Shown in pieces: positions 150 to 16,818 of a DNA stretch of 25,397 nt (positions are counted from its first letter, which is position 1; each line of letters opens with the position of its first letter). The notes beneath the pieces were generated by a model. That model saw only the letters and a list, made by a program, of their open reading frames with translations. It did not search any database and had not been told where the DNA came from. This stretch comes from an uncultured Gammaproteobacteria bacterium (GTDB lineage Bacteria > Pseudomonadota > Gammaproteobacteria > Rariloculales > Rariloculaceae). The translations under genes and the position numbers were made by a program. Location of the stretch: NCBI GenBank assembly GCA_946887385.1, contig CAMPKU010000028.1, positions 1 to 25,397 on the forward strand, written 5' to 3'.

Positions 150-434
150 ATGTCAGGCTTCAAGACGCAGTCGAAGCGTCATCGCGAGCTCGCGAAGCTC
201 AACAAACGCCGCGCCAAGGACGAGAAGCGCGCGTTGCGTAAGGCTGAGCGATCCGCGTCGGCGAGCGACGCGCCCGTCGTGGCGCCGGCACCGGTCGCGG
301 TGGTCACCAAGCCGCCGGTCACGCCCCGCTATGGCATGCCGGCACCCGTTCCGGAGCGCAAGCCGCTCACCTTCGCGGAAGCCGTCGAGCGCTGGAAGGC
401 CACCAAGGTCGTGAAAACGAAGACGCGCGGCTGA
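150..434 (+). CDS. Small highly basic protein of unknown function
   Basis: This 94-residue protein has an N-terminal third dominated by Lys and Arg (residues 5-34, including KRHRELAKLNKRR and KRALRKAERS) that should form a charged amphipathic helix. An Ala/Pro/Val-rich, probably disordered linker follows (35-70), and then a short helical C-terminus with FAEAVERWKATK. There is no signal peptide or membrane segment. The helix composition resembles ribosome- or RNA-associated small proteins. The gene lies directly downstream of a Gly-rich protein's terminator, so it is separately transcribed or served by read-through. The Shine-Dalgarno is weak (AGCAGGG about 11 nt upstream). I do not recognise a named family; an RNA-related role is inference from charge and position. 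Confidence 0.7.
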   Translation: MSGFKTQSKRHRELAKLNKRRAKDEKRALRKAERSASASDAPVVAPAPVAVVTKPPVTPRYGMPAPVPERKPLTFAEAVERWKATKVVKTKTRG

Positions 435-685
435 CGCGCCTTTAGTCGCGACGCCGTCGGACCGTCGCGCAACTCTCCTCTCCAACTCGGCCTTTTGCGC
501 CGCTCACCCCCAGGATTTGGCCGCCGTCCGCTCGCCGTCGAGCGCCGCGCTCAGGGCCGCGGGTGAGACGATCGGCCATGCCGCGACACTTCATCCAGGC
601 GATTGCGTGCGCTCGCGGGTTTGGCGCAGGCCGTGCCCTATGAGAAGCTCGCTCCGCGCCGCCGGAGCCGTATTGGGAGAAGGGG

Positions 686-3600
686 ATGACCGCCGGAGTA
701 ACCGACCGCGCACGCGCCGTTCGGGCGCTGCTCGCGGCCTGGATGATGGCCGCAGCGGGCGCGCACGCGCAGCCGCCTGCGATGCCGCTCCGTGCGAATG
801 AGACTCTGCAAGCCGTACACGGCGCAACCGATCGCTTCCGCTACGCCCTCGACGTGGAGGATGCGGGGCCGTTCTTGCTGCGCGTCGAGCAACGCGGCCT
901 CGATCTCGTCGTGACCGTCGAGTCGCCGAACGGCGCAACCGAATCCTATAACTCGCCGCTCGTTCGCGACGGCAGCGAGTGGGTGCTGATCGACCGGCCG
1001 GGCCGCTATGGCGTGGAGGTGCGTTCCGAGGAGCACACGGGCGCGGGCGGCGGCCACGCGATCTCGTTGCGGCGCTTGCCCACGGGCGTCGACGCGCGCG
1101 AGCTCGACGCCTGGAACGCAATGGCGGCCGGCGAGGCCGCGAACTTCGCCGGCGGCGAAGCCGCCTGGGCGCGTTCGGCCGAAGCCTACGACACCGCGGC
1201 GCAACTCTGGGACGCGCTCGGGCGCTCGCGCGAGCGCGCGGACGCGCTGTTCGGTGCCGCATCGGTGCGCTATTGGCAGCTCTACGAGTGGGCTTTAGCG
1301 GCGGAGCGCGCCGCCGAAGCGGCGGCCGTCTACGTAACGCTGGGCGAGGCGGCGCTCGCCGCGAACGCGCGCCATTTGCAAGGGGCATCGCTCGTGGAGC
1401 AGGCGCTCGAGGCCGGCCAGAGCGCCACCGAAGCCGGCATCTCGCCGGAGTCCGCAGCGCTGTTCGCCACGGCGCTGCAATTGTTCGAGCAGGCGCGCGC
1501 CGTGCACGAGCAGCTCGGCAACGTCTACGACCTCGGGCTCGTCGTGAACAATATCGGCTACACATACTTCAGCATGGGCGAGCTTGTGCGCGCCCGCGGC
1601 TACTACGACGAAGCGGCCGTGCTGCTTGGCGGCGTCGACGAATGGACATTCGAGGCGTACGCGTTGCAGAACATCGCCGTGCTCGACGCGGAGGCCGGCG
1701 AGCTCGTGAGCGCCGCCGCGGCGTTCGCTCGGATCCTGGAGCTGCTGCCGGCCAGCAAGCCGGCCAATCGCGCCAACGTTCTCGATAACCTGGGTGCCAC
1801 GCAACGCTTGCTCGGCGACACCGAGCAAGCGCTGCAAGCGTTCACGACCGCGCTCGCGCTGCAGCGGGACGTGCACGATGCGCCGGGCGTGGGCCGGTCG
1901 CTGCGGCGAATCGGCGAGACGTACTACACGCTCGGCGAGCTCGAGCTCGCGAAGCAGTATCTCGAGCAAGCGCTGCCGATCGCACTCGAGACGAACGACG
2001 GGCGCGGCCAGGAAGCGGCGCTGCGTAATCTCGGCAACGTGGCCTATCTCGAACGCGATTACGCCGCGGCGCTCGACTATCACCGGCGCGCGCTCGAGGT
2101 GGCGGCGTCGGTGCTCGATCGCGGACACTTGCAGCTCCTCGTGGCGAAAGACCTGCTTGCGCTTGGCCGCGGAGCGGAATCCGCCGCCGCCGCGGCGGCT
2201 GCCGGTGGCGTGGCGGACGACACCGGCTCGGCCGTGCTCCGCGCCGGAGCATTCAATGCCGCCGGGCGGGCCGCGCTGCTCGCGGGCAACGCGACGGCGG
2301 CGGCCACGAGCCTCGAGCGGGCGGCCGAGATTTTCGGCGGTCTTCACATGCAAGCCGAGCGGGCCGAGGCGCTGCACGGCTTGTCGCTGGCGGCGCGGGC
2401 GAACGATCGCTTCGACGCGGCGGTGGAGTACGGCGACGAAGCGCTGGGGGAGATCGAGCGCTTGCGCGAGCGCGTGGCCGACCCCGAGCTGCGCGCGTTT
2501 TTCGCAGCAGCGCGGCGCGACTACTACGACGCGCAAATCGATCTTTGGATGCGAGGCGGCGCTACCGGCGACCGCGGCGCTCGGGCGGCGCTCGAGGTTA
2601 GCGAGCGAAGCCGCGCGCGCATGACCGCGGACCTCTTGCAGGAAGCGTCCATCGAGCTGCGGCACGGCGCCGATCCCAGCCTGCTCGCGCGCGAACGCGC
2701 GCTCTACGCGCAGCTGGCCGAGCGGCGCAATCAGCGGGACCTGCTGCTCGAGAGCGCTGCGGCCGGCGACAGCGAGCTCGCCCGCATCGTTGCAGACCTC
2801 GCGGCGCTCGAGAATTCGCTGAACTTGCTCGAGATCGAGCTGCGCCGCAGCGACCCGCGGCTCGCCGACATCACGGCGCCGCAAGCGCTCACGCCCGGAG
2901 AGATGCAGGCGCAGCTCGACGACGACACGGTGCTGCTTCAGTACGCGCTCGGGCCGAACGCAAGCTACGTGTGGACGATCACGCGCGACTCCATCGCGGC
3001 CGTGCGGCTCGCCGATCGAGCGACGATCGAGGGGGCGGCGCGCGCGGCGCTCACCGGCCTGCAGCGGTATGCGCCCGGCACGGCAACGGCCGCGTCGCGC
3101 GACCTTGCGGAGCTCGGTGCGCTGGTGCTCGACCCCATCGCGAGCCGGCTCACGAAGCGGCGCATCGTGCTCGCGCTCGACGGTGCACTGCAATACGTGC
3201 CGTTCGCGGCGTTGCCGGTTCGCACCGAAGGCGGCGCTGCGGCTCGGCCGCTGCTCGACGCGCACGAGATCGTGGAGATTCCGTCGCTGTCCACCGTTGT
3301 CGTGGCGCGCCGCAACGAGGCGCCGCGTGCGAGCAAGACGCTGGCGTTGTTCGCGGACCCCGTGTTCCAGGCGTCCGATCCGCGCCTCGACGGCGCAAGC
3401 TCACAACCGCTGCTGGCGGCGGCCGGCGATCGCATGGCGCGTGCCGGCGCGCGCAGCGACCTTGGCCGCTTGCTGTCCACGGGTTACGAGGCGGAGTCGA
3501 TTGCCGCGCTCGTGCCCGAGGAGCGGCGCGTCCTCGCGCGCGGCTTTGCGGCCAATCGCGACGCCGTCTTGAGCGCGGCGCTCGCCGACTACCGCTATAT

Positions 3601-4039
3601 TCACTTCGCCACCCACGGGCTCGTCGACGCCCGTTACCCCGGGCTATCGGCGCTCGTGCTGTCGCAGTTCGATGCGCGCGGCAACCCGCGCGACGGGTTC
3701 TTGCGACTTAGCGACATCTACAATCTGAAGCTCGGCGCGGATCTCGTCGTCTTGAGTGCCTGCGATACCGCGCTCGGGCGCGACATTCGCGGCGAGGGTT
3801 TGATCGGATTGACGCAAGGCTTCATGGCGGCCGGCGCCCGCAGCCTCGTCGCAAGCTTGTGGCAGGTGCCGGACCGGGCTACCGCAGAGCTCATGAAGAC
3901 GTTTTACGGTTTCATGCTGAACGACGGCATGCGGCCCGCGGAAGCGCTGCGCGAAGCGCAGCGCAGGAGCGCGGCCCAGCCGCAGTTCCGCCATCCATAT
4001 TTTTGGGGAGGGTTCGTCCTCGTGGGAGACTGGCAATGA
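686..4039 (+). CDS. Secreted TPR-CHAT domain protein (putative caspase-like cysteine protease)
   Basis: This 1117-residue protein starts at an ATG with GGGAGA about 6 nt upstream. A Sec signal peptide covers residues 1-28, with a likely cut after AHA. A beta-rich segment (about 45-130) resembles the pre-peptidase-like domain found in exported CHAT proteins. Tetratricopeptide repeats fill about 160-590 (for example NNIGYTYFSMGELVRARGYY and LRRIGETYYTLGELELAKQY). A helical linker leads to a CHAT domain at about 735-1115. The caspase-type dyad is intact: His977 in FATHG and Cys1026 in LSACDT, with the usual C-terminal GxxFVLVG. CHAT is a clan CD peptidase fold, and TPRs usually bind partners or gate activity. 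The signal peptide places it in the periplasm or outside, unlike the cytosolic TPR-CHAT of type III-E CRISPR. It is the first of five co-directional genes and overlaps the next by 4 nt. Substrate unknown. Confidence 0.93.
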   Translation: MTAGVTDRARAVRALLAAWMMAAAGAHAQPPAMPLRANETLQAVHGATDRFRYALDVEDAGPFLLRVEQRGLDLVVTVESPNGATESYNSPLVRDGSEWVLIDRPGRYGVEVRSEEHTGAGGGHAISLRRLPTGVDARELDAWNAMAAGEAANFAGGEAAWARSAEAYDTAAQLWDALGRSRERADALFGAASVRYWQLYEWALAAERAAEAAAVYVTLGEAALAANARHLQGASLVEQALEAGQSATEAGISPESAALFATALQLFEQARAVHEQLGNVYDLGLVVNNIGYTYFSMGELVRARGYYDEAAVLLGGVDEWTFEAYALQNIAVLDAEAGELVSAAAAFARILELLPASKPANRANVLDNLGATQRLLGDTEQALQAFTTALALQRDVHDAPGVGRSLRRIGETYYTLGELELAKQYLEQALPIALETNDGRGQEAALRNLGNVAYLERDYAAALDYHRRALEVAASVLDRGHLQLLVAKDLLALGRGAESAAAAAAAGGVADDTGSAVLRAGAFNAAGRAALLAGNATAAATSLERAAEIFGGLHMQAERAEALHGLSLAARANDRFDAAVEYGDEALGEIERLRERVADPELRAFFAAARRDYYDAQIDLWMRGGATGDRGARAALEVSERSRARMTADLLQEASIELRHGADPSLLARERALYAQLAERRNQRDLLLESAAAGDSELARIVADLAALENSLNLLEIELRRSDPRLADITAPQALTPGEMQAQLDDDTVLLQYALGPNASYVWTITRDSIAAVRLADRATIEGAARAALTGLQRYAPGTATAASRDLAELGALVLDPIASRLTKRRIVLALDGALQYVPFAALPVRTEGGAAARPLLDAHEIVEIPSLSTVVVARRNEAPRASKTLALFADPVFQASDPRLDGASSQPLLAAAGDRMARAGARSDLGRLLSTGYEAESIAALVPEERRVLARGFAANRDAVLSAALADYRYIHFATHGLVDARYPGLSALVLSQFDARGNPRDGFLRLSDIYNLKLGADLVVLSACDTALGRDIRGEGLIGLTQGFMAAGARSLVASLWQVPDRATAELMKTFYGFMLNDGMRPAEALREAQRRSAAQPQFRHPYFWGGFVLVGDWQ

Positions 4040-4575
4040 AGCAACGTTCTATCCGTGTTCTCGGCTTGGCAAGCGCGGGCGCGCTCATCGTCGGCTGTGC
4101 CGTGCTGCCGACGCCCGATCCGCGCGAGCCGGGTCCCGTGAAGGACTCGCCGGTCGTGCTGCGCGTGTGCTCGGTGGACGGTGACGGTGCGCACCTCGCG
4201 GTCGGCGATCAGGTCGAGCTCGCCACCAACCAACTCGGTCGTTTGCGAATTCGCCATCTCCCGAGCACGCAGAACCAAGCGCGCGCCTGGAACGGCGGCG
4301 AGGCCGTGCGCGTTCGCGATGCCGTGCTCGTCGAGATGCTCGACGCACGCGGACAGCGGCCGAACACACGCCGCTTCGTGCCGGTCGGCCGCTTCGACGT
4401 TCGCGTCGGCGACGCGCGCGAGCATGCGGCGTTCGACTTCCTGGCCAGCAAGGTCACCGCGCGCGTTGCCGAGCACATGTTCCGCGAGTGCATCGCAGAC
4501 GTCGGCGACGACGAAGTGATCGTGCGCGGCGTCGACGACTCGGATCTTCATGGCGGCGTGGCGCACCTGCGCTGA
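4036..4575 (+). CDS. Small predicted lipoprotein of unknown function
   Basis: This 179-residue protein has a start codon that overlaps the stop of the TPR-CHAT gene (ATGA), so translation is probably coupled. GGGAG lies 7 nt upstream. The N-terminus has Lys/Arg, a hydrophobic stretch and a lipobox (LIVG followed by Cys21), indicating lipid anchoring. The residue after the Cys is Ala, not Asp, which favours outer-membrane sorting. The mature part carries a short beta-rich segment (LRVCSVDGDGAHLAVGDQVEL), then mixed alpha/beta sequence with many Arg and Asp, and ends VAHLR. I recognise no named domain. Its position between two proteases suggests an anchor, cofactor, inhibitor or substrate for one of them; this is inference. 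It has two Cys in the mature part (about 44 and 157), which could form a disulfide. Confidence 0.85.
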   Translation: MKQRSIRVLGLASAGALIVGCAVLPTPDPREPGPVKDSPVVLRVCSVDGDGAHLAVGDQVELATNQLGRLRIRHLPSTQNQARAWNGGEAVRVRDAVLVEMLDARGQRPNTRRFVPVGRFDVRVGDAREHAAFDFLASKVTARVAEHMFRECIADVGDDEVIVRGVDDSDLHGGVAHLR

Positions 4576-4613
4576 CGTGCTCCCTTGACCGAGACGTCCG
4601 CCGCAGTGCCGTC

Positions 4614-5726
4614 ATGAGCTTGCGACGGCTCGTTGCTGCCGCGCTGGGCGCAGCGCTTTTCGCCGCGCCCGGCATCGGCGAGGACACGCTCGCCTCGAGC
4701 GCGGCACCGAACGATCCGCTGTTCGCGGCGCAATGGCCGCTCGCCAACAGCGAGCACCCGGGCGTGGGCGATGTCGGCGCCGTCGAGGCGTGGCGCTACA
4801 CGCGCGGCTCGCCCGACGTGCTCATCGCCGTGCTCGACGACGGCGTGCAGCTCGACCACCCGGATCTCGCCGCGAACATTGCAAGCCCGGGCCGCGACTT
4901 CGGCGCTCACCCGCGGGGCGCCGACGCGAGCCCGCGAACGCCCGCGGACCGGCATGGAACCGCCGTCGCGGGGGTGGTGGCGGCGCGCGGCGACAACGGC
5001 ATCGGCGTCACGGGCATCTGTCCGTTGTGCCGGATCTTGCCCATTCGCGTCGAAGGCGCCTCGAACGCGGGGCTCGCGGCCGCGTTCCGTTACGCCGTGG
5101 AGCAGGGCGCCGACGTCATCACGAATAGCTGGGGCCGCAACGAGCGGCCCGGCCTGGCCGACGACCCGGCGCTGCGCGAGGCGATCGCCTTTGCGGTGCA
5201 CTCGGGGCGCGACGGCCGCGGCACGCTCGTGATCTTCGCCGTGACGAACGACCCCATCGACGACTGCACAGACGAGCGTGCCGACGTCGTGTCGTTACCG
5301 GGCGTGCTCGCCGTCGGCGTCTCGAATCACCGCGACGAGGTCGGCGGCTCGGGCTTCGGCTCGTGTGTGGACCTCGTCGCGCCGTCGAAGCCCGCCGATC
5401 GCAGCACGGCCGGCGTGCCGACCACCGACCGTACCGGCCTCGACGGCCATACGGCGGACGACTACTACCTGAGCTTCGGCGGCACCTCGGCCGCCGCGCC
5501 GCTCGTCGCCGGCATCGCGGGGCTGCTGCTCGCGCGCCATCCCGAGCTTACGCGCGACGAGCTCGAGACCCTTCTCGAGGGCACTGCCGACAAGATCGAT
5601 CCCGCCAACGCCGGGTACGACGCGAGCGGCTTCAGCCGGCGCGCCGGCCATGGCCGCGTCAATGCCGCCCGCGCGCTGCGCAAAGGCGCGGAGCTCAACG
5701 AGCGTTCCCATGCCGTCTCGCGGTAG
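4614..5726 (+). CDS. Secreted subtilisin-family (S8) serine protease
   Basis: This 370-residue protein begins at ATG 4614, chosen because it gives a clean Sec signal peptide (residues 1-22). The in-frame sequence upstream is Arg-rich and runs back into the lipoprotein gene. The Shine-Dalgarno is poor. The S8 catalytic triad is complete: Asp75 in VLDDG, His114 in HGTAVAG, and Ser292 in GGTSAAAP. Asn212 (VTND) fits the oxyanion position. The catalytic domain covers about 35-345. There is little sequence between the signal peptide and the catalytic domain, so a classical I9 propeptide seems absent, which is unusual for a secreted subtilase. It lies 38 nt after the lipoprotein gene and 34 nt before the sigma factor gene, consistent with one operon. 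It may process an envelope target of the same pathway. Confidence 0.93.
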   Translation: MSLRRLVAAALGAALFAAPGIGEDTLASSAAPNDPLFAAQWPLANSEHPGVGDVGAVEAWRYTRGSPDVLIAVLDDGVQLDHPDLAANIASPGRDFGAHPRGADASPRTPADRHGTAVAGVVAARGDNGIGVTGICPLCRILPIRVEGASNAGLAAAFRYAVEQGADVITNSWGRNERPGLADDPALREAIAFAVHSGRDGRGTLVIFAVTNDPIDDCTDERADVVSLPGVLAVGVSNHRDEVGGSGFGSCVDLVAPSKPADRSTAGVPTTDRTGLDGHTADDYYLSFGGTSAAAPLVAGIAGLLLARHPELTRDELETLLEGTADKIDPANAGYDASGFSRRAGHGRVNAARALRKGAELNERSHAVSR

Positions 5727-5760
5727 CATCGCCTGGGGCGAGTGGAGAGGGTGTGAGGGC

Positions 5761-6372
5761 GTGGCCGAACGGTCGGACACCGAGCGGGAGCCGGAAATAG
5801 CGGCGGACCTGGTGGCGCGCATCGGCCGTGGCCTGCGTGAGGCCGAGGAGGCGATGGCGCGCCGCTATGGGCCGGGCTTGCTTTACTTGCTGAAGCGGCG
5901 CACGCGCGACGCGGAGCTTGCGCTCGATTTGCGGCAGGACACCTTGCGCGTGGCCATCGAGAAGCTGCGCAGCTCGTCGCTCGACGAGCCCGCGCACCTC
6001 GCGGCGTACTTGCGCGGCGTGGCGCTGAATCTTTGGATCGCTCACCAGCGCAAGTCCGTCCGCCGCGCCACGACGGCCGACTCCGACGCCGTGGAAGCCG
6101 CGGCCGACGTAGCGGAAAGCGGCCCATTCGAAAACGTGTCGCGCGTGCAGGTGCGCGCCGCCGTCGGCGCGCTGTTGGACGAGCTCGGCACGCCGCGCGA
6201 CCGCGAAATTCTCACCCGCGTCTACCTCCGCGACGAGGACAAAGACGACGTGTGCGCGGCGCTCGGCGTCGACGCCACGCACTTCAACCGCGTGCTATTT
6301 CGGGCCAAGCAGCGCTTCCGCGAGCTGTTGGTCCGGGCCGACCGCAGGAACAAGCTGCGGCTCGTCGGGTGA
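5761..6372 (+). CDS. ECF-type RNA polymerase sigma factor
   Basis: This 203-residue protein is assigned GTG 5761 as start because GGAGAGG (5744-5750) lies 10 nt upstream. An in-frame ATG at 5710 would overlap the subtilase gene and is the alternative. Region sigma2 is at about 30-100 (RRYGPGLLYLLKRRTRDAEL, then AAYLRGVALNLWIAHQRK). A variable linker follows, and sigma4 with a helix-turn-helix is at about 133-190 (TPRDREILTRVYLRDEDK, then VCAALGVDATHFNRVLFRAK). There is no sigma1.1 or sigma3, as expected for ECF factors. Its gene sits between a secreted protease and a membrane anti-sigma factor, so it probably turns an envelope signal into transcription. Target promoters are unknown. The group within the ECF classification cannot be assigned by eye. 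Confidence 0.88.
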   Translation: MAERSDTEREPEIAADLVARIGRGLREAEEAMARRYGPGLLYLLKRRTRDAELALDLRQDTLRVAIEKLRSSSLDEPAHLAAYLRGVALNLWIAHQRKSVRRATTADSDAVEAAADVAESGPFENVSRVQVRAAVGALLDELGTPRDREILTRVYLRDEDKDDVCAALGVDATHFNRVLFRAKQRFRELLVRADRRNKLRLVG

Positions 6373-6404
6373 GATAAACGGACGCGCCGCGGCAGTATCT
6401 CGAC

Positions 6405-7094
6405 ATGGACCCGCACCAGATGCACAGCTCTGACCTCATCGAGCGCTATCTTCAAGGCCGGCTATCGCCGGCCGAGGAGCAATCGTTCGAGGAGGCCTAT
6501 CTCGCCGATCCGGCGCTTCTTCAAGAGGTGCAGCTCGCGGAGCGGCTGCGCGAGGGCCTCAAGGATTGGGCGGATGTACAGGAAGCGCCGCGTCCCGCCG
6601 CGCGTTCGGGCTGGCTTGCGCGCGCAGGCTCGCCGCACTACGGCATCGCGGCGTCGGTGGTGGCGGCGGTTGCGCTCGTGACGGCCGGCGCTCTCTACGT
6701 GCAGAACCAAGGGCTCGAAGCGGGTGGCGGCGGCACTGCGGCGCGGCACGCACGCGTGCTGCCGCTCATGTCGGTGCGCGGCGGCGGCGAGGCGAACACG
6801 AATGCGATCGCGGCGCCTTCGGCCGACGAGTGGACCGTGCTGCTCCTCGATACGGGCTTCGCCGACTACGACGTCTTCGGAGCCGCGCTGCTGCGCGACG
6901 GCAGCGACGAAGAGCTCCTGCGGCTCGACGGCATCGACGCCAGCGACGGCACGGTGGCCTTCGGCGTGCCCGGCAGCGCCCTGCCGCCCGGCCGCTACGA
7001 GGTTCGGCTCGAAGGCGCTCGTCGCGATTGGCCGGCGGGCCGCGCGCCCGACGAGCTGAGCCGCACTCGGCTCACCGTCAATCCCCGCCCGTAA
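6405..7094 (+). CDS. Probable single-pass anti-sigma factor
   Basis: This 229-residue protein starts 32 nt after the sigma gene. Residues 8-55 form a helical cytosolic region of the type seen in anti-sigma N-termini (LIERYLQGRLSPAEEQSFEE, then DPALLQEVQLAERLREGL). One transmembrane helix spans about 79-99, and the C-terminal 130 residues should be periplasmic. This part has a Gly-rich linker and a beta-rich segment (for example WTVLLLDTGF and GRYEVRLEG). The protein has no cysteine, so it cannot be a zinc-binding ZAS anti-sigma factor. Assignment rests on position, topology and N-terminal composition. A periplasmic domain exposed to the two upstream secreted proteases fits a proteolysis-controlled release mechanism, which is inference. 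Confidence 0.78.
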   Translation: MDPHQMHSSDLIERYLQGRLSPAEEQSFEEAYLADPALLQEVQLAERLREGLKDWADVQEAPRPAARSGWLARAGSPHYGIAASVVAAVALVTAGALYVQNQGLEAGGGGTAARHARVLPLMSVRGGGEANTNAIAAPSADEWTVLLLDTGFADYDVFGAALLRDGSDEELLRLDGIDASDGTVAFGVPGSALPPGRYEVRLEGARRDWPAGRAPDELSRTRLTVNPRP

Positions 7095-7198
7095 GCGCTC
7101 CTTCCGTTCGTTCGTCTCGCCGCTCGCTCGCCGCTCGCGGCAAGCGGTGACGTGCGCGCGACAGCCGCTAACCAATTCTTTTTCGCAAAGTGAGATGC

Positions 7199-7240
7199 GT
7201 GCCGCATTCGCGGCACTACTGCTATTACAGGGAATGCGGC
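7199..7240 (+). promoter_or_regulatory. Two mutually exclusive hairpins upstream of the diguanylate cyclase gene
   Basis: A 7-bp hairpin with a 4-nt loop (GTGCCGC at 7199-7205 with GCGGCAC at 7210-7216) shares its left arm with a longer 9-bp hairpin (GCCGCATTC at 7201-7209 with GAATGCGGC at 7232-7240). Only one can form at a time, and the second ends 17 nt before the ribosome binding site (7258-7263). This geometry fits a leader switch or translational control. The segment just upstream (about 7168-7195) is unusually AT-rich for the window and may hold a promoter. If translation began at ATG 7195, the hairpins would be coding. Confidence 0.4.
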
Positions 7241-7269
7241 GGATGTTTCGACCGCGCGAGGTAAGAACA

Positions 7270-8430
7270 ATGAACGACGATCGGCTCCTTGAGATCTCTT
7301 CCACTCCCGCCGACTGGCAACACGCGCAGCGCGCGGGTGACATTCTGCGGTTCGCGCCGGTCGCGCCGCTTAGCACGGCGGGAGGCTGTTGCATCGTGGC
7401 GGCCTGCCTTTGGCCCGTGTTGCCGCAGATGTGGCTATCGGCGTGGCTCGGTGCCGGGTTGTTCGTCGCGCTGGCGCAGTGGCAGTCGCAGCGCTTCATC
7501 GGCGGTGCGCCGGCGGGCGTCGACCGCCGCGGCTGGATCATCGCCAGCGCGCTGGCATCGGGCCTGTTCTGGGGTGCCACGAGTCTGGCGCTCAACCCCA
7601 CCGGCTCGATCGCTCATCAGCTGTTGTTCGCGTTCATTCTCGTAGTCATCACGACACTTTGGTTGCCGTTATTTGCGCTGACGCGTCTCGCTTTCGTGGC
7701 GTTTGCGGTGCCCGGCTTGCTGCCCATGGCGTTTGGTCTACTCGCATCCCCCGAACCCCCACAAACGACCATGGGCAGCCTCTTAATATTGTTGATCGGA
7801 GTATTCGCGGCCGTCGCGCATACGACGCGCCGCATTTTCTTCGCCGACGTGGCTACGCGCCGCGAGCTGTATCGCCAGGCGACGCAGGACAGCCTCGTCG
7901 GGCTCGCGAACCGCGCGGAGTTCCACCGCCGCGCGCAGACGCTCGAGATCATGGGCGATCGCCCTTACGCCATGCTGTTCCTCGACGTCGACCACTTCAA
8001 GGAAGTCAACGACACCGCCGGCCACGCAGCGGGCGACGAGCTGTTGTGCCGCATCGGCGCGGTGTTGAAGGACGCGGTGCGCAAGGAGGATCTAGCGGCG
8101 CGCCTCGGCGGCGACGAGTTCGCGATCCTGATGAAGGATTGCTCGGCGGCCGCCGCGGCCGAAGTGGCCGCGAACGTTTTGGAGCGGATCCGCGGCTTGG
8201 CGTTGACGTGCGGACCGCGCCGCCGGCGTATGTCTGCGAGTATCGGAATTGCGTGCAGCGCGGATCTGTGCGCGAGCCCTGCGAAGCTGCTCGAAGCCGC
8301 GGACCAGGCGTGCTACGCCGCGAAGCGCGGCGGACGCAACCGTGTCGAGATCGCCACCGGCTTGCATGAGCCGCCTTCGCGGTCCGCGGGCCGTGCGCAC
8401 TTCGCAATCGTCAGCGACGTGCCGGCCTAG
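7270..8430 (+). CDS. Membrane-bound diguanylate cyclase (GGDEF)
   Basis: This 386-residue protein makes cyclic di-GMP from two GTP. ATG 7270 was chosen for the strong GAGGT at 7258-7263 region; in-frame ATGs at 7195 and 7147 would add a short hydrophobic N-terminus. Residues about 36-185 contain five or six hydrophobic segments (36-56, 58-72, 88-106, 116-135, 138-158, 168-185), a membrane sensor region of no recognised named type. The GGDEF domain covers about 203-370 with an intact GGDEF at 280-284 and metal/GTP-binding features (FLDVDHFKEVND). RKED at 271-274, five residues before GGDEF, is the product-inhibition I-site. The enzyme should therefore be active and feedback-inhibited. No EAL domain follows. 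A small gene begins 10 nt after its stop. Confidence 0.94.
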   Translation: MNDDRLLEISSTPADWQHAQRAGDILRFAPVAPLSTAGGCCIVAACLWPVLPQMWLSAWLGAGLFVALAQWQSQRFIGGAPAGVDRRGWIIASALASGLFWGATSLALNPTGSIAHQLLFAFILVVITTLWLPLFALTRLAFVAFAVPGLLPMAFGLLASPEPPQTTMGSLLILLIGVFAAVAHTTRRIFFADVATRRELYRQATQDSLVGLANRAEFHRRAQTLEIMGDRPYAMLFLDVDHFKEVNDTAGHAAGDELLCRIGAVLKDAVRKEDLAARLGGDEFAILMKDCSAAAAAEVAANVLERIRGLALTCGPRRRRMSASIGIACSADLCASPAKLLEAADQACYAAKRGGRNRVEIATGLHEPPSRSAGRAHFAIVSDVPA

Positions 8431-10670: not shown

Positions 10671-11189
10671 CTAAAAGGGGGTGATGGGGGAGCCGGGCCA
10701 GAGGGTGTCGACTGGCATGGCGGCTTCGCGCTGGGCTTGGCGCACGGCTTCGGCGTCGGGGGCTTGGTAGAAGCAGAGCATGCGCTTGCGGTCGAGCGAC
10801 AAGAACGAGTGCGTGTGGGTGATGCGGTGCATCTGAAGGCACCAGGCGCTGGCGTGCGCTTGCGCCGCAACGTCCTCGAACTGCACGGGGGCGGGAAACG
10901 ACCGCTCGACGACCACGCTCGGCGCCGCGGGGGTGGGCGCCGGGTGCACGGTGCCGGCCCAGAAACGCGACAGGTCGATGTCGGGGTGGCGCAGCGCGAG
11001 CCGCGCCGACTCCATGTCGGGGGCGGAGAACCAGCAAATCATGGCGCGGCCATCGCGACCGAGGAAACTGCTGTGCCACCGAACGCGGTGCAGGTCGAAG
11101 CACCAGGCGCTCTCCCGCGCGCCGCTCAGCACCGCTTCGCGGGTGAGCGGCTCGTCGAACGTGCGTTCGAGAAATACGTTCGTCGTCAC
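10671..11189 (-). CDS. Tandem DUF4242-family protein
   Basis: This 172-residue protein starts at GTG 11189, which overlaps the stop of the upstream regulator gene by 4 nt (GTGA). GAGGTG is 8-9 nt upstream, so the start is well supported. It consists of two copies of the same about 65-residue domain at residues 5-68 and 92-153. Each has FLERTF or VVERSF, then SAWC, a Leu/Met-His-Arg motif, a beta pair and an ICWF or LCFY strand. Paired residues are Cys30/Cys117, His34/His121 and Cys52/Cys139. The family is a ferredoxin-like fold annotated DUF4242 and sometimes called nickel-binding. Metal binding here is inference from conserved Cys/His. It is coupled to a BTAD regulator and may be a signal receptor or an enzyme of the locus. 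Confidence 0.82.
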   Translation of the reverse strand: MTTNVFLERTFDEPLTREAVLSGARESAWCFDLHRVRWHSSFLGRDGRAMICWFSAPDMESARLALRHPDIDLSRFWAGTVHPAPTPAAPSVVVERSFPAPVQFEDVAAQAHASAWCLQMHRITHTHSFLSLDRKRMLCFYQAPDAEAVRQAQREAAMPVDTLWPGSPITPF

Positions 11190-14100
11190 CCCGGCACCTC
11201 GGCCCATTCGGCGGTTGCTGCGAAGATCCGATCCCGCGCCCATTGCGCGACGGGCGCGTGCTCGAGCGACTTGAGCGCGGCCACGTGCTTCGCATAACCC
11301 GCCGTATCGGCGATGGCCTTGCGGGCGCGCGCCAGCGCCGCGTGCGCCAGCAAAATCTCCGTGGCTCGGTCGAGCAACTCCGCGTAGCCGAGCGCTTCGG
11401 TGGCGCGCGCGATTGCTGCGTCGGGCCGGCCGCGGTCCACGTCGAGCAGCGCGGCGCGCGTGAGCGTATAGGCCAGCCGATGCTTGGCATCTGCCGCCCG
11501 GAGTGCGCCGAGCGCAAGGTCGAGCGGCGCGGGGTCGTCGGAGCTGGCGTAGTGGCACAGTGCGTCGAGCGCGTGAGCGAACGGCCGCTCGCTGCCCTCG
11601 CGCAGCTTGTCGCCGAGCTCCACGAGCGTCTTGCAGTGACTGCGCGCCGCGTCCAGGCGGCCGCGTTCGAAATCGATCATCGCCAAGTACTCGTTCGCTT
11701 GGAACTCATCGAGCCGATCGCCGCGAGCTCGTGCGAGCGTGCGCGCCTCCTTGAACAGCTCCACGGACTCGTCGAGCTTGTTCTCGTGAAAGCGCAGCAT
11801 GCCGAGCGCCGCCGGGATGGCGTTGTGTCTCATGCCTTTTCGCGCCGCAAGCGCCTGCGCCTCCATGAGCATCGCGTCGGCGTGCGGCAGGTCGCGCTCG
11901 AGCATGACGAGGCAGCGTGCGGCCTCGGCGATACCGACGATGTGCTCCTCGTCGCCGCCGCTGCGCGCCACGCGCTCCGATTGCAGGATTTCCTCACGCG
12001 CGTTGGCGAAGCGGCCGTGCATCCAATGCACGTAGCTCGCCATGAAATAGCCCCGGCGAGCGTGCGACAAAGCGCCGTGGTCCAGCGCCTGCTCGGCGAG
12101 CGCGGCGTACTCGCGCGCGGCAGCCTCCCAGTCTGCGACGGGCGCGGCCGTGTGCATCACCTCGCGCAGCTCCAGCGTGAGACAGACGCGCTCGGCTGCG
12201 CCGGGCAATTGCTCCACCCATTGCAGCCCTTTGCCGGCGAGGGCGAGCGCCTCGTCGTTGGCAAAGAACCGCAGACACAGGCGCCCGGCCGACACCATCG
12301 CGCGGGCCGCGAGCGCCGGATCGCCGCTCTGCGCGGCGTGGTGCGCTAAATCGGCTGCGCGCTCGGGCTCGACCACGCTGTCTTGCTCGAGCAGCTCCGC
12401 GACGCGGCGGTGCATCGTGCGCCGGCGCGCGGGCGACAGCCCCTCGTAGATGCAGCGCGCGATCAAGTCGTGCGAGAAGCGCAAGCCGCGTTCGGCGGGT
12501 TGCAGCATCGAGTGCCGTGCTGCGGTCTCGAGCGCTTCGCCTACGGCGTTCCAATCGAGCCCCGTGAGCCGCGCCAGCGACGCGGCGTCGATGCGCGGTG
12601 CGAGCACGGCGGCCCAGCGCAGCACCTCGCCGCCGTCGGCATCGAAGCCTGCAAGACGCTCCTGAAGAACCTCGCGCAGCGATTGACCGCTTTCGCCGGC
12701 CTCTTCGGCGCGCGCCAGCTCGATGGCAAGCAGCGGGTTGCCGCCGCACTCCTTGCACAAGCGCGCGGCGTCGACGGCCGGCGCGCGCGCGCCGATGATC
12801 TCGCGCACGGCGTCCTCGCCGAGCGCCTCGAGATCGAGCTCCTCGAGCAACCCTGCTTGGCGCAAGTCGCGCAGCGCGCGCATCACGGGCGTGTTGTCGC
12901 GCAACTCGTCGCGCCGCGATGCGAGCAATGCCAGCACCGGCAGGTCGGCGCTCGTGCGCACCACGTAATGCAACGCCGCCGCGCTCGACTCGTCGCTCCA
13001 TTGCAGGTCGTCGAACGCGAGCACGGCAGGTTGCGCCCCGGCGCGCTCGGCGATCGCTTCGCCGATGCGCTCGAAGAGCCGGGTGCGGCTCGAGCCCGAG
13101 CCGTCGCCGGGTGCGAACACGGCCGTGGCGGCACTCGGCGACAGCTTGCGCAATGCATCGACGAATAGCGCGAACGGCCGAATCGATTCGGCCTCGTAAG
13201 CGGCGGCCTCGAGCACCACGGCGCCCGAAGCGCGCGCGAGCGCCCCGGCGGCCTCGAGCAAGCGGCTCTTGCCGATGCCGGGCTCGCCGCGCAGCAGCAC
13301 GGCCCGGCAGCGGCGCTGCGCGAAGCACTCCGTGATGAGCTGGCGCAGCCGCTCGAGCTCCGCATCGCGCCCCACGAGCTTAGACTCGGCCGCACCGGCC
13401 GTTCGCGTGCGCTCGAGCGCCAACACTTGAGCGGGCGGCGGCGTGGAATGAAGCGGCTGCGGCGGTGCGCCGCGGGTTGCGGCGCCCGGTTCGCCGCGCC
13501 AGGCGCGAAACAGCAAACCCGTCGGCGTAGCGCCGGCCTCCTTCAACAGCCGCGACCCGAGCTCGTACTGCTGCTCGGCCTGGTCCGGCCGGCCGAGCGT
13601 CATCAGCAGCCGAATGAGCGCCGCGCGCGCCGGCTCGTCGTAGGGCGCAATGCGCACGCGTGTGCGCGCGTGCTCGAGCGCGCGTTGCGGATCGCCGGCC
13701 AGCCGCTCGAGCAGCGCGTTCAAGAGGCGAAGCTGATTCGCCGTGGCTCGCTCGCGCTCGCCGATGTGCCACGCGGAATAATCGTGGAACGTAGGCAGCT
13801 CGAGGCCCTCGAGCGGCGTTTCGCAGTAGCGCGCGGCGGCGGCTTCGAGCGCCTCGAGCGGGATGCCGGCGAGATCTGCTTGCACGAGCGACGCCAAGCC
13901 TGCCACGTCGACGTCCGCCCCGGCGGCGTCGAAACGCACGGTGAGCCGGTCCGCGACGATGCGCTCGCAGGTCTCGTCGTCGACGAGCCGGCGCAGCTTC
14001 GACAAGCTCCAGCGCAGCGAGCCGCGCGGATCGTCGGGAATCTCCCAGAGCAGCTCGCATAGATGCTCGCGGCGGAACGAGCGGCCCGTAAGCGCGAGAT

Positions 14101-14203
14101 ACGCCAGCAACGCGCGTGTCTTGCGCGACGGCGGCAGCGGCAGCGGTTCGCCGTGGCGGGCGATCGTGAGATCGCCGAGAAACTTGAGCTTCAAGGCCGC
14201 CAT
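11186..14203 (-). CDS. Large transcriptional regulator: winged helix-BTAD-ATPase-TPR
   Basis: This 1005-residue protein starts at ATG 14203. Residues 1-95 form an OmpR-type winged helix (LKLKFLGDLTIARHGEPLPL, then RKTRALLAYLAL). A bacterial transcriptional activation domain follows at about 97-240. An AAA/STAND-type ATPase module begins at about 275 (LVGRDAELERL) with Walker A GEPGIGKS at 306-313 and Walker B VLAFDD at 394-399. The C-terminal half is helical and TPR-like. This is the AfsR/SARP-like regulator plan, also resembling MalT-type STAND regulators, but DNA binding is N-terminal here. Such proteins usually activate genes after ligand- and ATP-dependent oligomerisation. It is divergent from the cysteine synthase gene, with phased repeats between, and its stop is coupled to the DUF4242 gene. 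An open frame in the same phase continues upstream, but it is antisense to the neighbour. Confidence 0.92.
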   Translation of the reverse strand: MAALKLKFLGDLTIARHGEPLPLPPSRKTRALLAYLALTGRSFRREHLCELLWEIPDDPRGSLRWSLSKLRRLVDDETCERIVADRLTVRFDAAGADVDVAGLASLVQADLAGIPLEALEAAAARYCETPLEGLELPTFHDYSAWHIGERERATANQLRLLNALLERLAGDPQRALEHARTRVRIAPYDEPARAALIRLLMTLGRPDQAEQQYELGSRLLKEAGATPTGLLFRAWRGEPGAATRGAPPQPLHSTPPPAQVLALERTRTAGAAESKLVGRDAELERLRQLITECFAQRRCRAVLLRGEPGIGKSRLLEAAGALARASGAVVLEAAAYEAESIRPFALFVDALRKLSPSAATAVFAPGDGSGSSRTRLFERIGEAIAERAGAQPAVLAFDDLQWSDESSAAALHYVVRTSADLPVLALLASRRDELRDNTPVMRALRDLRQAGLLEELDLEALGEDAVREIIGARAPAVDAARLCKECGGNPLLAIELARAEEAGESGQSLREVLQERLAGFDADGGEVLRWAAVLAPRIDAASLARLTGLDWNAVGEALETAARHSMLQPAERGLRFSHDLIARCIYEGLSPARRRTMHRRVAELLEQDSVVEPERAADLAHHAAQSGDPALAARAMVSAGRLCLRFFANDEALALAGKGLQWVEQLPGAAERVCLTLELREVMHTAAPVADWEAAAREYAALAEQALDHGALSHARRGYFMASYVHWMHGRFANAREEILQSERVARSGGDEEHIVGIAEAARCLVMLERDLPHADAMLMEAQALAARKGMRHNAIPAALGMLRFHENKLDESVELFKEARTLARARGDRLDEFQANEYLAMIDFERGRLDAARSHCKTLVELGDKLREGSERPFAHALDALCHYASSDDPAPLDLALGALRAADAKHRLAYTLTRAALLDVDRGRPDAAIARATEALGYAELLDRATEILLAHAALARARKAIADTAGYAKHVAALKSLEHAPVAQWARDRIFAATAEWAEVPG

Positions 14204-14254
14204 CGCGCGGATTGTAGTTCCGGCCCGCGGCCCGGGCCATGGCGCGCGTGGCTT

Positions 14255-14305
14255 CCACGAAGGCAGTCCGCAAAAACCACGCTCGCTCCCACGGGCACTG
14301 CCACG
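14255..14305. promoter_or_regulatory. Phased CCACG direct repeats in divergent promoter region (candidate regulator sites)
   Basis: The 150-nt region between the regulator and the cysteine synthase gene holds four direct copies of CCACG starting at 14255, 14277, 14289 and 14301. Spacings are 22, 12 and 12 nt, close to whole helical turns. The last two read CCACGG. SARP-type regulators are known to bind direct repeats on one helical face. The region also holds CGTGG-CTT-CCACG (14247-14259) and GGCCCG/CGGGCC (14222-14238). No clear -35/-10 was seen. Binding by the adjacent regulator is inference. Confidence 0.4.
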
Positions 14306-14353
14306 GTGAGCGCGGAGGCTGTGCCCCCAGACGATGGCCGCAAGGAGAAGCCC

Positions 14354-15856
14354 ATGGCCCGCTACATGAACATCCTCGAGACGATCGGCAACACGCCGCT
14401 CGTGAAGCTCGGCAAGCTCGCGCCGCCGGGCGTGAATCTGTACGTCAAAGTCGAAGCGTTCAACCCGATGGGCTCCGTGAAGGACCGCATGGCGCGCGCC
14501 ATCATCGAGCGCGCCGAGCGCAGCGGGCAGCTCGAGCCCGGCCAAACCGTGATCGAGGCCACGAGCGGCAACACCGGCATCGGGCTCGCGATGGTGTGTG
14601 CGCAGAAGGGCTATCCGCTCGTCGTGACGATGGCGGAAAGCTTCAGCATCGAGCGGCGCAAGCTGCTGCGCTTCCTCGGCGCCAAAGTGGTGCTCACACC
14701 GGCGGCCGACAAAGGCACGGGCATGCTCGCGAAAGCCGTAGAGCTCGCAGAGGCGCACGGCTGGTTCCTGTGCCGGCAGTTCGACAACGAAGCCAACGCC
14801 GACGTGCACACGCGCACGACGGCGCAGGAGATCCTCGCCGACTTCGCCGGCGAGCGGCTCGACTACTGGGTGTCGGGCTTCGGTACCGGCGGCACGCTGA
14901 AAGGCGTGGCGCGCGCGCTGAAACAGGCGAGCCCCGTGACGCGCGTGGTGGCCGCCGAGCCCGACAACTCGCCGGTGCTCGGCAGCGGCATCCCGCAGGC
15001 GCGCGCTGCCGACGGCAACCCCAGCGAGAGCCATCCGCAATTTCGCCCGCACCTCATGCAGGGCTGGGCGCCGGACTTCATCTCGAAGCTCACCGAGGAT
15101 GCGGTCCGCGCGGGGCACATCGACGAGATCGTGCCGGTGGCCGGCACCGATGCGCTGAAGCTCGCGCGCGAGCTCGCGCGGCGCGAAGGCATCTTCGTCG
15201 GCACGTCGAGCGGCGCGACGCTTGCAGCAGCGCTCACCATCGCGCGGCGCTCGAAGCCCGGCACGAACATCGTGTGCATGCTGCCGGACACCGGCGAGCG
15301 GTATCTGTCGACGCCGCTGTTCGAGGATATCGGCGAGGAGATGACGGCCGAGGAGCTCGCGCTGTCGCGCTCGACGCCGTCGTGCCGCTTCGATGCAGCC
15401 GCGCCTTCGCCCGCACCGAGCGCGCCTTCGCGGGCGGCGCCCAATCCCGTGGCGCTCGATACGGAAGCCGAGCGGTTCGTCGACGACGTCGTGCGCACCG
15501 AGCCCGTGGTGCTGTTCGCGCTCGAGTGGTGCGAGTTTTGCTGGTCCGTGCGCAAGCTCTTCGCGCGGCTCGGCATCGCCTACCGCAGCGTGGACCTCGA
15601 CTCCGTGGAGTATCAACCCGGCGATCGCGGCGGAAAGATCCGCGCCGTGCTTGCTGCGCGCACCGGCTTGAAGACGATTCCGCAAATCTTCATCGGCGGC
15701 ACGCACGTCGGCGGTGCCACCGACCTGTTCGACGCGTGGCGCAGCGGGGCGGCCCGTGAGCTGCTCGCGAAACGCGGCGCGGCGTTCGATGGCAGCGCCG
15801 ATCTCGATCCCTATGCGCTGCTGCCGAAATGGCTGCAGCCCCGCAAGAGCGCTTGA
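14354..15856 (+). CDS. Cysteine synthase-like PLP enzyme fused to glutaredoxin
   Basis: This 500-residue protein starts at ATG 14354 after AAGGAG (14342-14347). Residues about 5-330 are a fold-type II PLP enzyme of the cysteine synthase/CBS family. Lys43 in GSVKDR should hold PLP, SGNTG at 71-75 is the substrate loop, GTGGT at 177-181 binds phosphate, and TSSGA is at 284-288. These enzymes replace an O-acetyl- or O-phosphoserine leaving group with a sulfur nucleophile. An Ala/Pro/Ser-rich linker (about 345-368) leads to a glutaredoxin domain at about 370-470, with active site WCEFC (Cys393, Cys396), cis-Pro443 in TIPQ and the GGTHVGG element. CEFC differs from the usual CPYC. The fusion could couple disulfide or glutathionyl reduction to sulfur transfer. 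It heads a three-gene operon divergent from the BTAD regulator. The sulfur donor is unknown. Confidence 0.92.
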   Translation: MARYMNILETIGNTPLVKLGKLAPPGVNLYVKVEAFNPMGSVKDRMARAIIERAERSGQLEPGQTVIEATSGNTGIGLAMVCAQKGYPLVVTMAESFSIERRKLLRFLGAKVVLTPAADKGTGMLAKAVELAEAHGWFLCRQFDNEANADVHTRTTAQEILADFAGERLDYWVSGFGTGGTLKGVARALKQASPVTRVVAAEPDNSPVLGSGIPQARAADGNPSESHPQFRPHLMQGWAPDFISKLTEDAVRAGHIDEIVPVAGTDALKLARELARREGIFVGTSSGATLAAALTIARRSKPGTNIVCMLPDTGERYLSTPLFEDIGEEMTAEELALSRSTPSCRFDAAAPSPAPSAPSRAAPNPVALDTEAERFVDDVVRTEPVVLFALEWCEFCWSVRKLFARLGIAYRSVDLDSVEYQPGDRGGKIRAVLAARTGLKTIPQIFIGGTHVGGATDLFDAWRSGAARELLAKRGAAFDGSADLDPYALLPKWLQPRKSA

Positions 15857-15870
15857 GGAGGAGCGTTGCA

Positions 15871-16818
15871 ATGAGCGCCGGAGCTTTACCCGTCATCGAC
15901 ATCCGCGACTTGCGCAGAGCGGCCACCCACCGCGCGATCGACGCCGCGTGTGCCGAATGGGGCTTCTTTCAGGTCGTGGGGCACGGTATCGACGAGCGAA
16001 CGTTGGGCGCGCTGCGTCGCGAGATGCGCGCGTTCTTCGCGCTGCCGCTCGCTGCCAAGCACGCGATCATGCGCACGGCCGAGAACCCGTGGGGCTTCTA
16101 CGACCGCGAGCTCACGAAGCAGACGCGCGACTGGAAACAGATCTACGACTACGGCCCGGCCGACGGCAAGACAATCGTGCCGCAACTGCCGCGAGAGCTG
16201 CCCGGATTCGCGCCTGCGATCGGGCGGTTCTATGCCGAGTGCGACGCGCTGGCGTTCGAGCTCATGGAAGTGATCGCGGCCAATCTCGGCATGCCGCCGG
16301 GTGCGCTCGACGCGTGCTTTCGGCCGCACCACACGAGCTTTCTACGGCTCAACTACTATCCGCCGTGTCCCACGCCGGCGCGGCCCACGGATGTGTCGGC
16401 CGCGCGCGCCGGGCACCTCGGCGTGAACGCTCACACCGACGCCGGCGCGCTGACGCTGCTGCTGCAAGACGAGCAGCCGGGGCTCGAGGTTTTCCATGCC
16501 GGCGAATGGCACCTCGTGGAGCCGCGCCGCGACGCGCTCGTCGTGAACATCGGCGACATCGTGCAAGTGTGGTCCAACGATCGCTATACCGCGGCCCTGC
16601 ACCGCGGCCTCGCTTCGGCCCACGCCGAGCGGTTCAGCGCTCCGTTTTTCTTCAATCCGGCGTACCACACGGAGTACGCGCCGCTGCCGTCGACCGTCGA
16701 CGCGCAGCATCCGCCGCGTTACAGGCCCATTCACTGGGGCGCGTTTCGCGCCCGCCGTGCCGCCGGCGACTACGCCGACCACGGCGAATACCACTCGATC
16801 AGTCACTACTCGCGTTGA
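15871..16818 (+). CDS. Isopenicillin-N-synthase-like Fe(II)/2-oxoglutarate-type dioxygenase
   Basis: This 315-residue protein starts at ATG 15871, with GAGGAGGAG at 15855-15863, 14 nt after the upstream stop. The N-terminal DIOX_N-type region includes GFFQVVGHGI (31-40). The double-stranded beta-helix carries the iron triad His188 and Asp190 (HTD) plus His244 (ALHRG). Arg254 and Ser256 (RFS) match the 2-oxoglutarate carboxylate site. Isopenicillin N synthase also has RxS but uses no 2-oxoglutarate, so cosubstrate use is not settled by these residues. Substrate is unknown. Next to a cysteine synthase fusion, a cysteine-derived substrate is an attractive but untested idea. The next gene begins 14 nt downstream. 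Confidence 0.92.
   Translation: MSAGALPVIDIRDLRRAATHRAIDAACAEWGFFQVVGHGIDERTLGALRREMRAFFALPLAAKHAIMRTAENPWGFYDRELTKQTRDWKQIYDYGPADGKTIVPQLPRELPGFAPAIGRFYAECDALAFELMEVIAANLGMPPGALDACFRPHHTSFLRLNYYPPCPTPARPTDVSAARAGHLGVNAHTDAGALTLLLQDEQPGLEVFHAGEWHLVEPRRDALVVNIGDIVQVWSNDRYTAALHRGLASAHAERFSAPFFFNPAYHTEYAPLPSTVDAQHPPRYRPIHWGAFRARRAAGDYADHGEYHSISHYSR

What the first reader, a model, noticed from the sequence alone, without database searches (positions are those of the whole stretch)
686..7094. Five-gene envelope cassette: secreted TPR-CHAT, lipoprotein, subtilase, ECF sigma, anti-sigma
The sequence shows five co-directional genes with gaps of -4, 38, 34 and 32 nt. Two encode exported proteins with intact protease residues (H977/C1026 in CHAT; D75/H114/S292 in S8), one a lipoprotein, and the last two a sigma/anti-sigma pair with a periplasmic sensor part. 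Established knowledge: CHAT is a caspase-like peptidase, and in type III-E CRISPR a TPR-CHAT protease cuts Csx30, which controls an RpoE-like sigma factor. Inference: here a periplasmic CHAT and/or subtilase may cut the anti-sigma factor or the lipoprotein to release the sigma factor, giving a CRISPR-independent protease-to-sigma circuit.
Basis: partly seen in the sequence, partly recalled or inferred. Interest (0 to 1): 0.82.

Follow-up and report, generated by a model that had tools for sequence, protein, structure and literature searches.

The report
Exported caspase-like protease with sigma/anti-sigma pair
Five neighbouring genes of an uncultured bacterium, probably a gammaproteobacterium, hold a core that recurs in distant bacteria: an exported caspase-like (CHAT) protein beside a gene switch and its membrane-bound inhibitor. 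It looks like a way to turn protein cutting outside the cytoplasm into gene expression, but no cutting has been tested.

Summary
All five genes, gaps and catalytic residues are confirmed. The conserved unit is smaller and wider than claimed: ECF sigma + single-pass anti-sigma + exported TPR-CHAT. In a survey anchored on the sigma (CHAT not used to choose), 12 of 13 close gammaproteobacterial and 18 of 23 close acidobacterial loci have CHAT within 7 kb; at lower similarity, 1 of 8 and 6 of 9. In eight genomes, 0 of 140 other listed sigma-70 hits do. The CHAT dyad is intact. S8 sits in 2 of 52 related loci; trypsin-like or haem-peroxidase genes appear in others. The anti-sigma's periplasmic Ig-like domain also occurs in 19 of 40 CHAT loci lacking this sigma clade, but in 0 of 20 CHAT-free ECF loci. 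Near the membrane it bears a near-invariant Arg (63 of 64), usually followed by Ser/Gly/Ala (54 of 63): a candidate cut site. Best reading: regulated proteolysis of the anti-sigma by exported protease(s), unproved. Precedents: Craspase (Csx29/Csx30/CASP-sigma), and ECF54, reported with CHAT and subtilase neighbours but without an anti-sigma. New variant of a known kind.

The parts
686..4039 (+). TPR-CHAT protein, 1117 aa; predicted signal peptide, N-terminal region, TPR repeats, C-terminal CHAT domain (residues 807-1115)
   Evidence: export is read from the sequence
3614..3616 (+). CHAT catalytic His977
   Evidence: His in 36 of 37 aligned CHATs, the other has a gap there
3761..3763 (+). CHAT catalytic Cys1026
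   Evidence: Cys in 37 of 37
4036..4575 (+). Lipoprotein, 179 aa, lipobox Cys21, HGG-containing C-terminal tail; weak calycin-like beta-barrel model
4614..5726 (+). S8 subtilase with predicted signal peptide, D75/H114/S292; closest solved relatives by sequence Mirolase, kexin, furin
5761..6372 (+). ECF sigma factor, 203 aa
6405..7094 (+). Single-pass anti-sigma factor, 229 aa (role inferred)
   Evidence: its N-terminal half is matched weakly at CHAT-free ECF loci
6633..6716 (+). Predicted transmembrane helix of the anti-sigma (residues 77-104)
   Evidence: hydrophobicity read from sequence
6747..7091 (+). Predicted periplasmic Ig/FN3-like beta domain of the anti-sigma (residues 115-229)
   Evidence: shared by other CHAT-linked proteins
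6777..6782 (+). Near-invariant Arg125 followed by Gly126, just outside the membrane: candidate cut site (hypothesis)

Best explanation
This is a CRISPR-free protease-to-sigma switch. The single-pass anti-sigma holds the ECF sigma at the inner membrane through its helical cytoplasmic part. An exported TPR-CHAT cysteine protease cuts the anti-sigma in the exposed loop between membrane and Ig-like domain, most likely after the near-invariant Arg125. Ordinary site-2 and cytoplasmic proteolysis then frees sigma, which transcribes its own operon and an unknown regulon. In this lineage the subtilase and lipoprotein are accessories: perhaps a second, basic-specific protease and a ligand-binding barrel. 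Shown: gene content, residues, linkage, domain sharing, Arg conservation. Inferred: export, topology, sigma-anti-sigma binding. Not shown: cutting, the site, the signal, the regulon, autoregulation.
For: Linkage without using CHAT in selection: 12 of 13 gammaproteobacterial sigma loci at >=155 bits and 18 of 23 acidobacterial ones have CHAT within 7 kb. In 8 genomes, 10 of 10 clade sigmas versus 0 of 140 other sigma-70 hits (150 of 152 tallied hits were listed) lie within 7 kb of CHAT, Fisher p=8.6e-16; these 8 were picked after linkage was seen, so one search is the fair count. Dyad: His 36 of 37 (one gap), Cys 37 of 37. By a crude and generous hydrophobicity rule 30 of 37 CHATs have an N-terminal signal-like segment; one of the 30 (L060) looks like a false positive, 4 of the 7 misses are cut by contig or region ends, L001 has a clear signal at an inner start, L088 is borderline and L002 unresolved. 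The anti-sigma periplasmic domain occurs in 19 of 40 CHAT loci without this sigma clade (18 distinct genes), where six of ten neighbouring genes tested are other ECF-type sigmas, and in 0 of 20 CHAT-free ECF loci. CHAT and anti-domain distances correlate beyond sigma across 37 loci (partial r 0.37). Arg at the juxtamembrane position in 63 of 64 distinct proteins, followed by S/G/A in 54 of 63; alignment-free motif in 42 of 65 versus 18.3 expected.
Against: No cleavage, binding or expression data. The Arg may be structural: it follows a strand, and it persists in 8 anti-sigmas with no CHAT in the stretch held (three of these stretches end within 1.2 kb of sigma). Within the close family other positions are about as invariant. 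CHAT is on the other strand from sigma in 7 of the 30 linked close loci. Unlinked gamma loci: 1 of 13 close and 7 of 8 less similar ones. Four of ten neighbours tested beside the wider anti-sigmas matched no sigma family. CHAT cleavage specificity is unknown. The trypsin-like enzymes at L004 and L055 have Glu and Ala at the position counted as 189, so a shared Arg specificity of the accessory proteases is not supported.
Confidence: 0.4

Rival explanations
1. CHAT, subtilase and lipoprotein are outputs: the sigma/anti-sigma pair senses an envelope signal itself, and sigma turns on exported proteases for cleanup, nutrition or attack.
For: Genes are co-directional with sigma and anti-sigma last; accessory enzymes change between loci (S8, trypsin-like, haem peroxidase), as outputs would.
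Against: CHAT accompanies the anti-sigma periplasmic domain also where this sigma clade is absent, which a mere regulon member need not do; CHAT lies on the opposite strand in 7 of 30 linked close loci.
Confidence: 0.35
2. An envelope-level conflict or self-destruction module: CHAT and partner enzymes are killing or damage effectors held by the sigma circuit.
For: CHAT, subtilase and trypsin-like domains are exchanged in known conflict systems (recalled); variable enzyme slot.
Against: PADLOC matches only a TPR model for CHAT, and subtilase and a weak IetS model for S8; the families found in nine neighbouring frames are not defence families; predicted export would be unusual for an anti-phage protease (recalled).
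Confidence: 0.12
3. The subtilase, not CHAT, is the site-1 protease in this lineage; CHAT is a scaffold or activator of it.
For: Nearest solved relatives of S8 by sequence include kexin and furin, basic-residue cutters (recalled), fitting the near-invariant Arg; S8 is directly upstream of sigma.
Against: S8 was not found in 50 of 52 related sigma loci (some are cut short), although the Arg is kept in the anti-sigmas of that set (45 of 45 rows, window included).
Confidence: 0.1

Closest known systems
Type III-E CRISPR Craspase: Csx29 (TPR-CHAT) / Csx30 / CASP-sigma (PMC10028731, passages read)
   Same: A TPR-CHAT protease linked to an ECF sigma and its inhibitor
   Different: Here CHAT has a predicted signal peptide, the inhibitor is a predicted single-pass membrane protein with an Ig-like outer domain, and no CRISPR part was found in the window
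ECF54 sigma group (review PMC8999054, section 3.3 and a table passage read; the primary paper, Casas-Pastor 2021, is not held)
   Same: Reported conserved neighbours include subtilase and CHAT proteins; control by proteolysis proposed
   Different: The review lists it among ECFs without an anti-sigma, with a model member from Geodermatophilus; here an anti-sigma gene lies within 300 bases of sigma in 12 of 13 gamma and 23 of 23 acidobacterial close loci
RseA/DegS/RseP-type regulated proteolysis of anti-sigma factors (PMC8103513, passages read)
   Same: An exported protease, a membrane anti-sigma and an ECF sigma are the proposed parts
   Different: The site-1 candidate is a caspase-like CHAT protein rather than a PDZ serine protease; not demonstrated
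Metacaspase operons with sigma-70 genes in Myxococcus and others (PMC3501461, passages read)
   Same: Caspase-fold protease next to sigma genes
   Different: Metacaspase rather than CHAT; no anti-sigma link in the passages seen

Membership tests
CHAT peptidases | Pfam CHAT domain above cut-off with His/Cys dyad | tested here: met
   220.9 bits versus cut-off 24; H977/C1026
CHAT peptidases | Proteolytic activity | not testable with these tools
   bench assay needed
ECF sigma factors | Sigma region 2 plus ECF model above cut-off | tested here: met
   TIGR02937 47.2 bits versus 42.9; Sigma70_r2 27.3 versus 24
Membrane anti-sigma factors | Helical cytoplasmic part, one TM helix, gene next to sigma | tested here: met
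   by prediction and position only; weak N-terminal similarity to proteins at other ECF loci
Membrane anti-sigma factors | Binds its sigma | not testable with these tools
   no complex prediction offered
Type III-E CRISPR Craspase | CRISPR array and Cas7-11 beside CHAT | tested here: not met
   no direct repeats within 200 bases at minimum length 20; no such family in nine neighbouring frames; beyond the window not tested
Type III-E CRISPR Craspase | CHAT domain close in sequence to solved Csx29 | tested here: inconclusive
   the CHAT domain alone matched no solved chain at E<=1
ECF54 | CHAT and subtilase in the neighbourhood | tested here: met
   met in the window; in relatives CHAT is common and S8 rare
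ECF54 | Listed as not associated with an anti-sigma | tested here: not met
   anti-sigma gene adjacent
ECF54 | Sequence membership in the ECF54 group | not tested
   group model and member sequences not at hand
S8 subtilases | Asp/His/Ser triad and Pfam S8 | tested here: met
   147.3 bits; D75/H114/S292
Lipocalin/calycin superfamily (lipoprotein) | Lipocalin-like barrel | tested here: inconclusive

The most novel reading that the evidence does not exclude
A widespread, CRISPR-independent signalling class in which exported caspase-like CHAT proteases are dedicated site-1 proteases of membrane anti-sigmas, cutting after one near-invariant juxtamembrane Arg. The same outer domain is plugged onto different ECF sigma types, and Craspase would then be a cytoplasmic, RNA-triggered branch of an older protease-to-sigma theme.
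Probability: 0.3. Interest if true: 0.85.

Novelty: new variant of a known kind. Interest (0 to 1): 0.57.

Why it matters
Few bacterial CHAT proteins have a known substrate, and for many anti-sigmas the first cutting protease is unknown (both recalled). If right, one conserved Arg in one loop answers both at once, makes a direct substrate prediction for many genes, and gives the Craspase sigma circuit a CRISPR-free relative to compare with.

Tried and rejected
Five-gene unit as the conserved entity: rejected outside close relatives.

Gly/His-rich C-terminal tails of small operon proteins as CHAT substrates: an HGG-like tail is kept in 111 of 120 relatives of the window lipoprotein; GG in the last 14 residues in 15 of 35 small genes near the anchors versus 15 of 163 others. 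By eye the tails did not recur beside the 40 CHAT loci without this sigma, and of 13 other small proteins compared only L004 gave a faint match to the lipoprotein profile. Left open, not used.

ECF-type promoter upstream of CHAT: no shared motif seen by eye or simple pattern; sigma-70 scan 0 hits in 400-7400.

Viral contigs: no lipoprotein relative. Rfam: no match at gathering score. PADLOC: TPR for CHAT, subtilase and a weak IetS match for S8.

Literature: 10 searches of an open-access library; two searches listed only the top 20 of 909 and 54 papers. The papers seen that tie CHAT to an ECF sigma are the Craspase ones and the ECF54 sentence in PMC8999054. Two listed papers that hold the word CHAT domain, PMC8055020 and PMC10907252, were not opened. 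PMC7406223 and PMC8103513 hold neither ECF54 nor CHAT. The primary ECF classification paper is not held, so a description of this very context there cannot be excluded.

Dropped rows and limits: the deep anti-sigma set has 65 rows; L108 and L131 are one gene (the only one with Asp instead of Arg), so 64 distinct. Sigma hits below 80 bits were left out, and one weak hit (G010, contig 161) was never fetched wide. In the 19 of 40 count one gene is seen from two loci. The 40 CHAT loci were picked from the higher-scoring listed rows in six acidobacterial genomes. The 20 control ECF loci were picked from higher-scoring TIGR02937 rows of five of those genomes with no CHAT listed nearby, so their lack of CHAT is by selection while their lack of the outer domain is not; they may be a more canonical kind of ECF. 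Candidate limits in the genome search make those tallies lower bounds. One neighbouring window frame (18794-20842) was not scanned by Pfam.
Full report
Observation. The five genes are real and as described: TPR-CHAT 686-4039, lipoprotein 4036-4575, S8 subtilase 4614-5726, ECF sigma 5761-6372 and a single-pass anti-sigma 6405-7094, all on the + strand, with gaps of -4, 38, 34 and 32 nt. Pfam and NCBIfam support CHAT, TPR, S8 and ECF sigma; the lipoprotein and anti-sigma match no family above its cut-off. No whole genome is held for the window. Where a source names close relatives by organism it says uncultured Gammaproteobacteria, and the closest locus in the genome collection is a Gammaproteobacteria MAG (L001, sigma 64% identical).

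What is conserved. I anchored on the sigma so that CHAT could not bias the choice. A scan of genome contigs gave 11 loci. Further searches found hits in 7 of 97, 6 of 369, 8 of 100 and 5 of 199 genomes (samples overlap and candidate limits make these lower bounds), and wider regions were fetched. In the resulting 52 loci, sigma genes scoring at least 155 bits have CHAT within 7 kb in 12 of 13 gammaproteobacterial and 18 of 23 acidobacterial cases, and an anti-sigma within 300 bases in 12 of 13 and 23 of 23. At 80-155 bits the CHAT figures are 1 of 8 and 6 of 9. Of the 5 unlinked close acidobacterial loci, 3 end within 1.2 kb of the sigma gene.

Control. The 15 gammaproteobacterial genomes searched carry 0 to 8 CHAT matches each, so linkage is telling. 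In 8 of them, 10 of 10 clade sigmas and 0 of 140 other listed sigma-70 hits lie within 7 kb of a CHAT. Those 8 genomes were chosen after their linkage was known; the fair rate is that. In five other gamma genomes (G010, G035, G038, G050, G469) 1 of 9 loci surveyed is linked.

Accessories. S8 was found in 2 of the 52 loci besides the window (L001, L002). At L004 and L055 a trypsin-like gene sits beside CHAT, and at L062 and L069 an animal-type haem peroxidase gene does. The lipoprotein family was found in 1 of 296 genomes of the order but has 175 protein clusters in the large protein set. Eight contig lengths shared by the sigma, lipoprotein and anti-sigma listings suggest contigs that carry all three (indirect).

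CHAT. The His is present in 36 of 37 aligned CHATs (the other has a gap there) and the Cys in 37 of 37. By a crude, generous hydrophobicity rule 30 of 37 begin with a signal-like segment, with the reservations given under evidence. Csx29 of Craspase, by contrast, works inside the cell with an RNA-guided complex.

CHAT and the outer domain. In 40 acidobacterial CHAT loci chosen away from this sigma clade, 19 carry a protein with the same outer domain (18 distinct genes). Of ten genes from beside such proteins, six are ECF-type sigma factors by Pfam and four matched no sigma family. In 20 CHAT-free ECF loci, from five of the same six genomes, none has that domain: five weak matches stop at or before model position 107. 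Distances of CHAT and the outer domain correlate across 37 loci, and still do after removing sigma (partial r 0.37). Shared descent of whole modules explains part of this.

A candidate cut site. In an alignment of 65 such anti-sigmas (64 distinct; 8 have no CHAT in the stretch held), Arg125 is kept in 63 of 64 and followed by Ser, Gly or Ala in 54 of 63, between the membrane and the folded domain. An alignment-free motif test gives 42 of 65 against 18.3 expected from shuffles. In the close family it is 85 of 85, but other positions are about as invariant. The model is unsure here (block mean pLDDT 62 for residues 121-130). This is what a protease site would look like, and also what a structural Arg in a tight turn would look like. 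The subtilase's nearest solved relatives by sequence are Mirolase, kexin and furin; kexin and furin cut after basic residues (recalled). The two trypsin-like accessories do not both keep an acidic residue at position 189 (Glu and Ala by count).

Known systems. Csx29/Csx30/CASP-sigma is the closest mechanism (PMC10028731, passages). The review PMC8999054 states that ECF54 has carboxypeptidase, subtilase and CHAT proteins in its context and that proteolytic control without an anti-sigma has been proposed (section 3.3 and a table passage). So an ECF-CHAT-subtilase neighbourhood is in print; what I did not find in 10 searches of an open-access library is an exported CHAT tied to a membrane anti-sigma. 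Sequence membership in ECF54 could not be tested.

Verdict. The core is conserved, has no CRISPR part in the window, and is built as regulated proteolysis would need, but no cutting has been shown. New variant of a known kind, interest 0.57.

Noticed in passing
L062 9362-11014, L069 9406-10959: Animal-type haem peroxidase genes lie between the anti-sigma and CHAT genes, with an unassigned small gene, in two gammaproteobacterial loci.
   Followed up: partly
L075, L077, L079, L080, L083: Small acidobacterial genes beside CHAT end in a WGA/WGG/FGA-like tail; several gamma small proteins end in GG/His tails. Meaning unknown.
   Followed up: partly
window 7147-8430: A GGDEF (diguanylate cyclase) gene follows the operon, with a short hairpin-like repeat at about 7199-7216 just before it; a likelier start is the ATG at 7271.
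   Followed up: no
window 7465-7556: ARAGORN calls a tRNA-Met inside the GGDEF reading frame; probably a false call.
   Followed up: no
window 11186-15871 (-): Large 1561-aa frame with an AAA_16 ATPase domain, opposite in strand to the operon.
   Followed up: no
G003, G005, G008, G549: Single acidobacterial genomes hold 35 to 44 CHAT matches; 19 of 40 such loci looked at carry an anti-sigma-like gene.
   Followed up: partly
L095 5234-5794 and 9977-11239: A PemK-like gene and a gene with a DUF2846-like match (below its cut-off) flank a sigma-CHAT pair in one acidobacterial locus.
   Followed up: no
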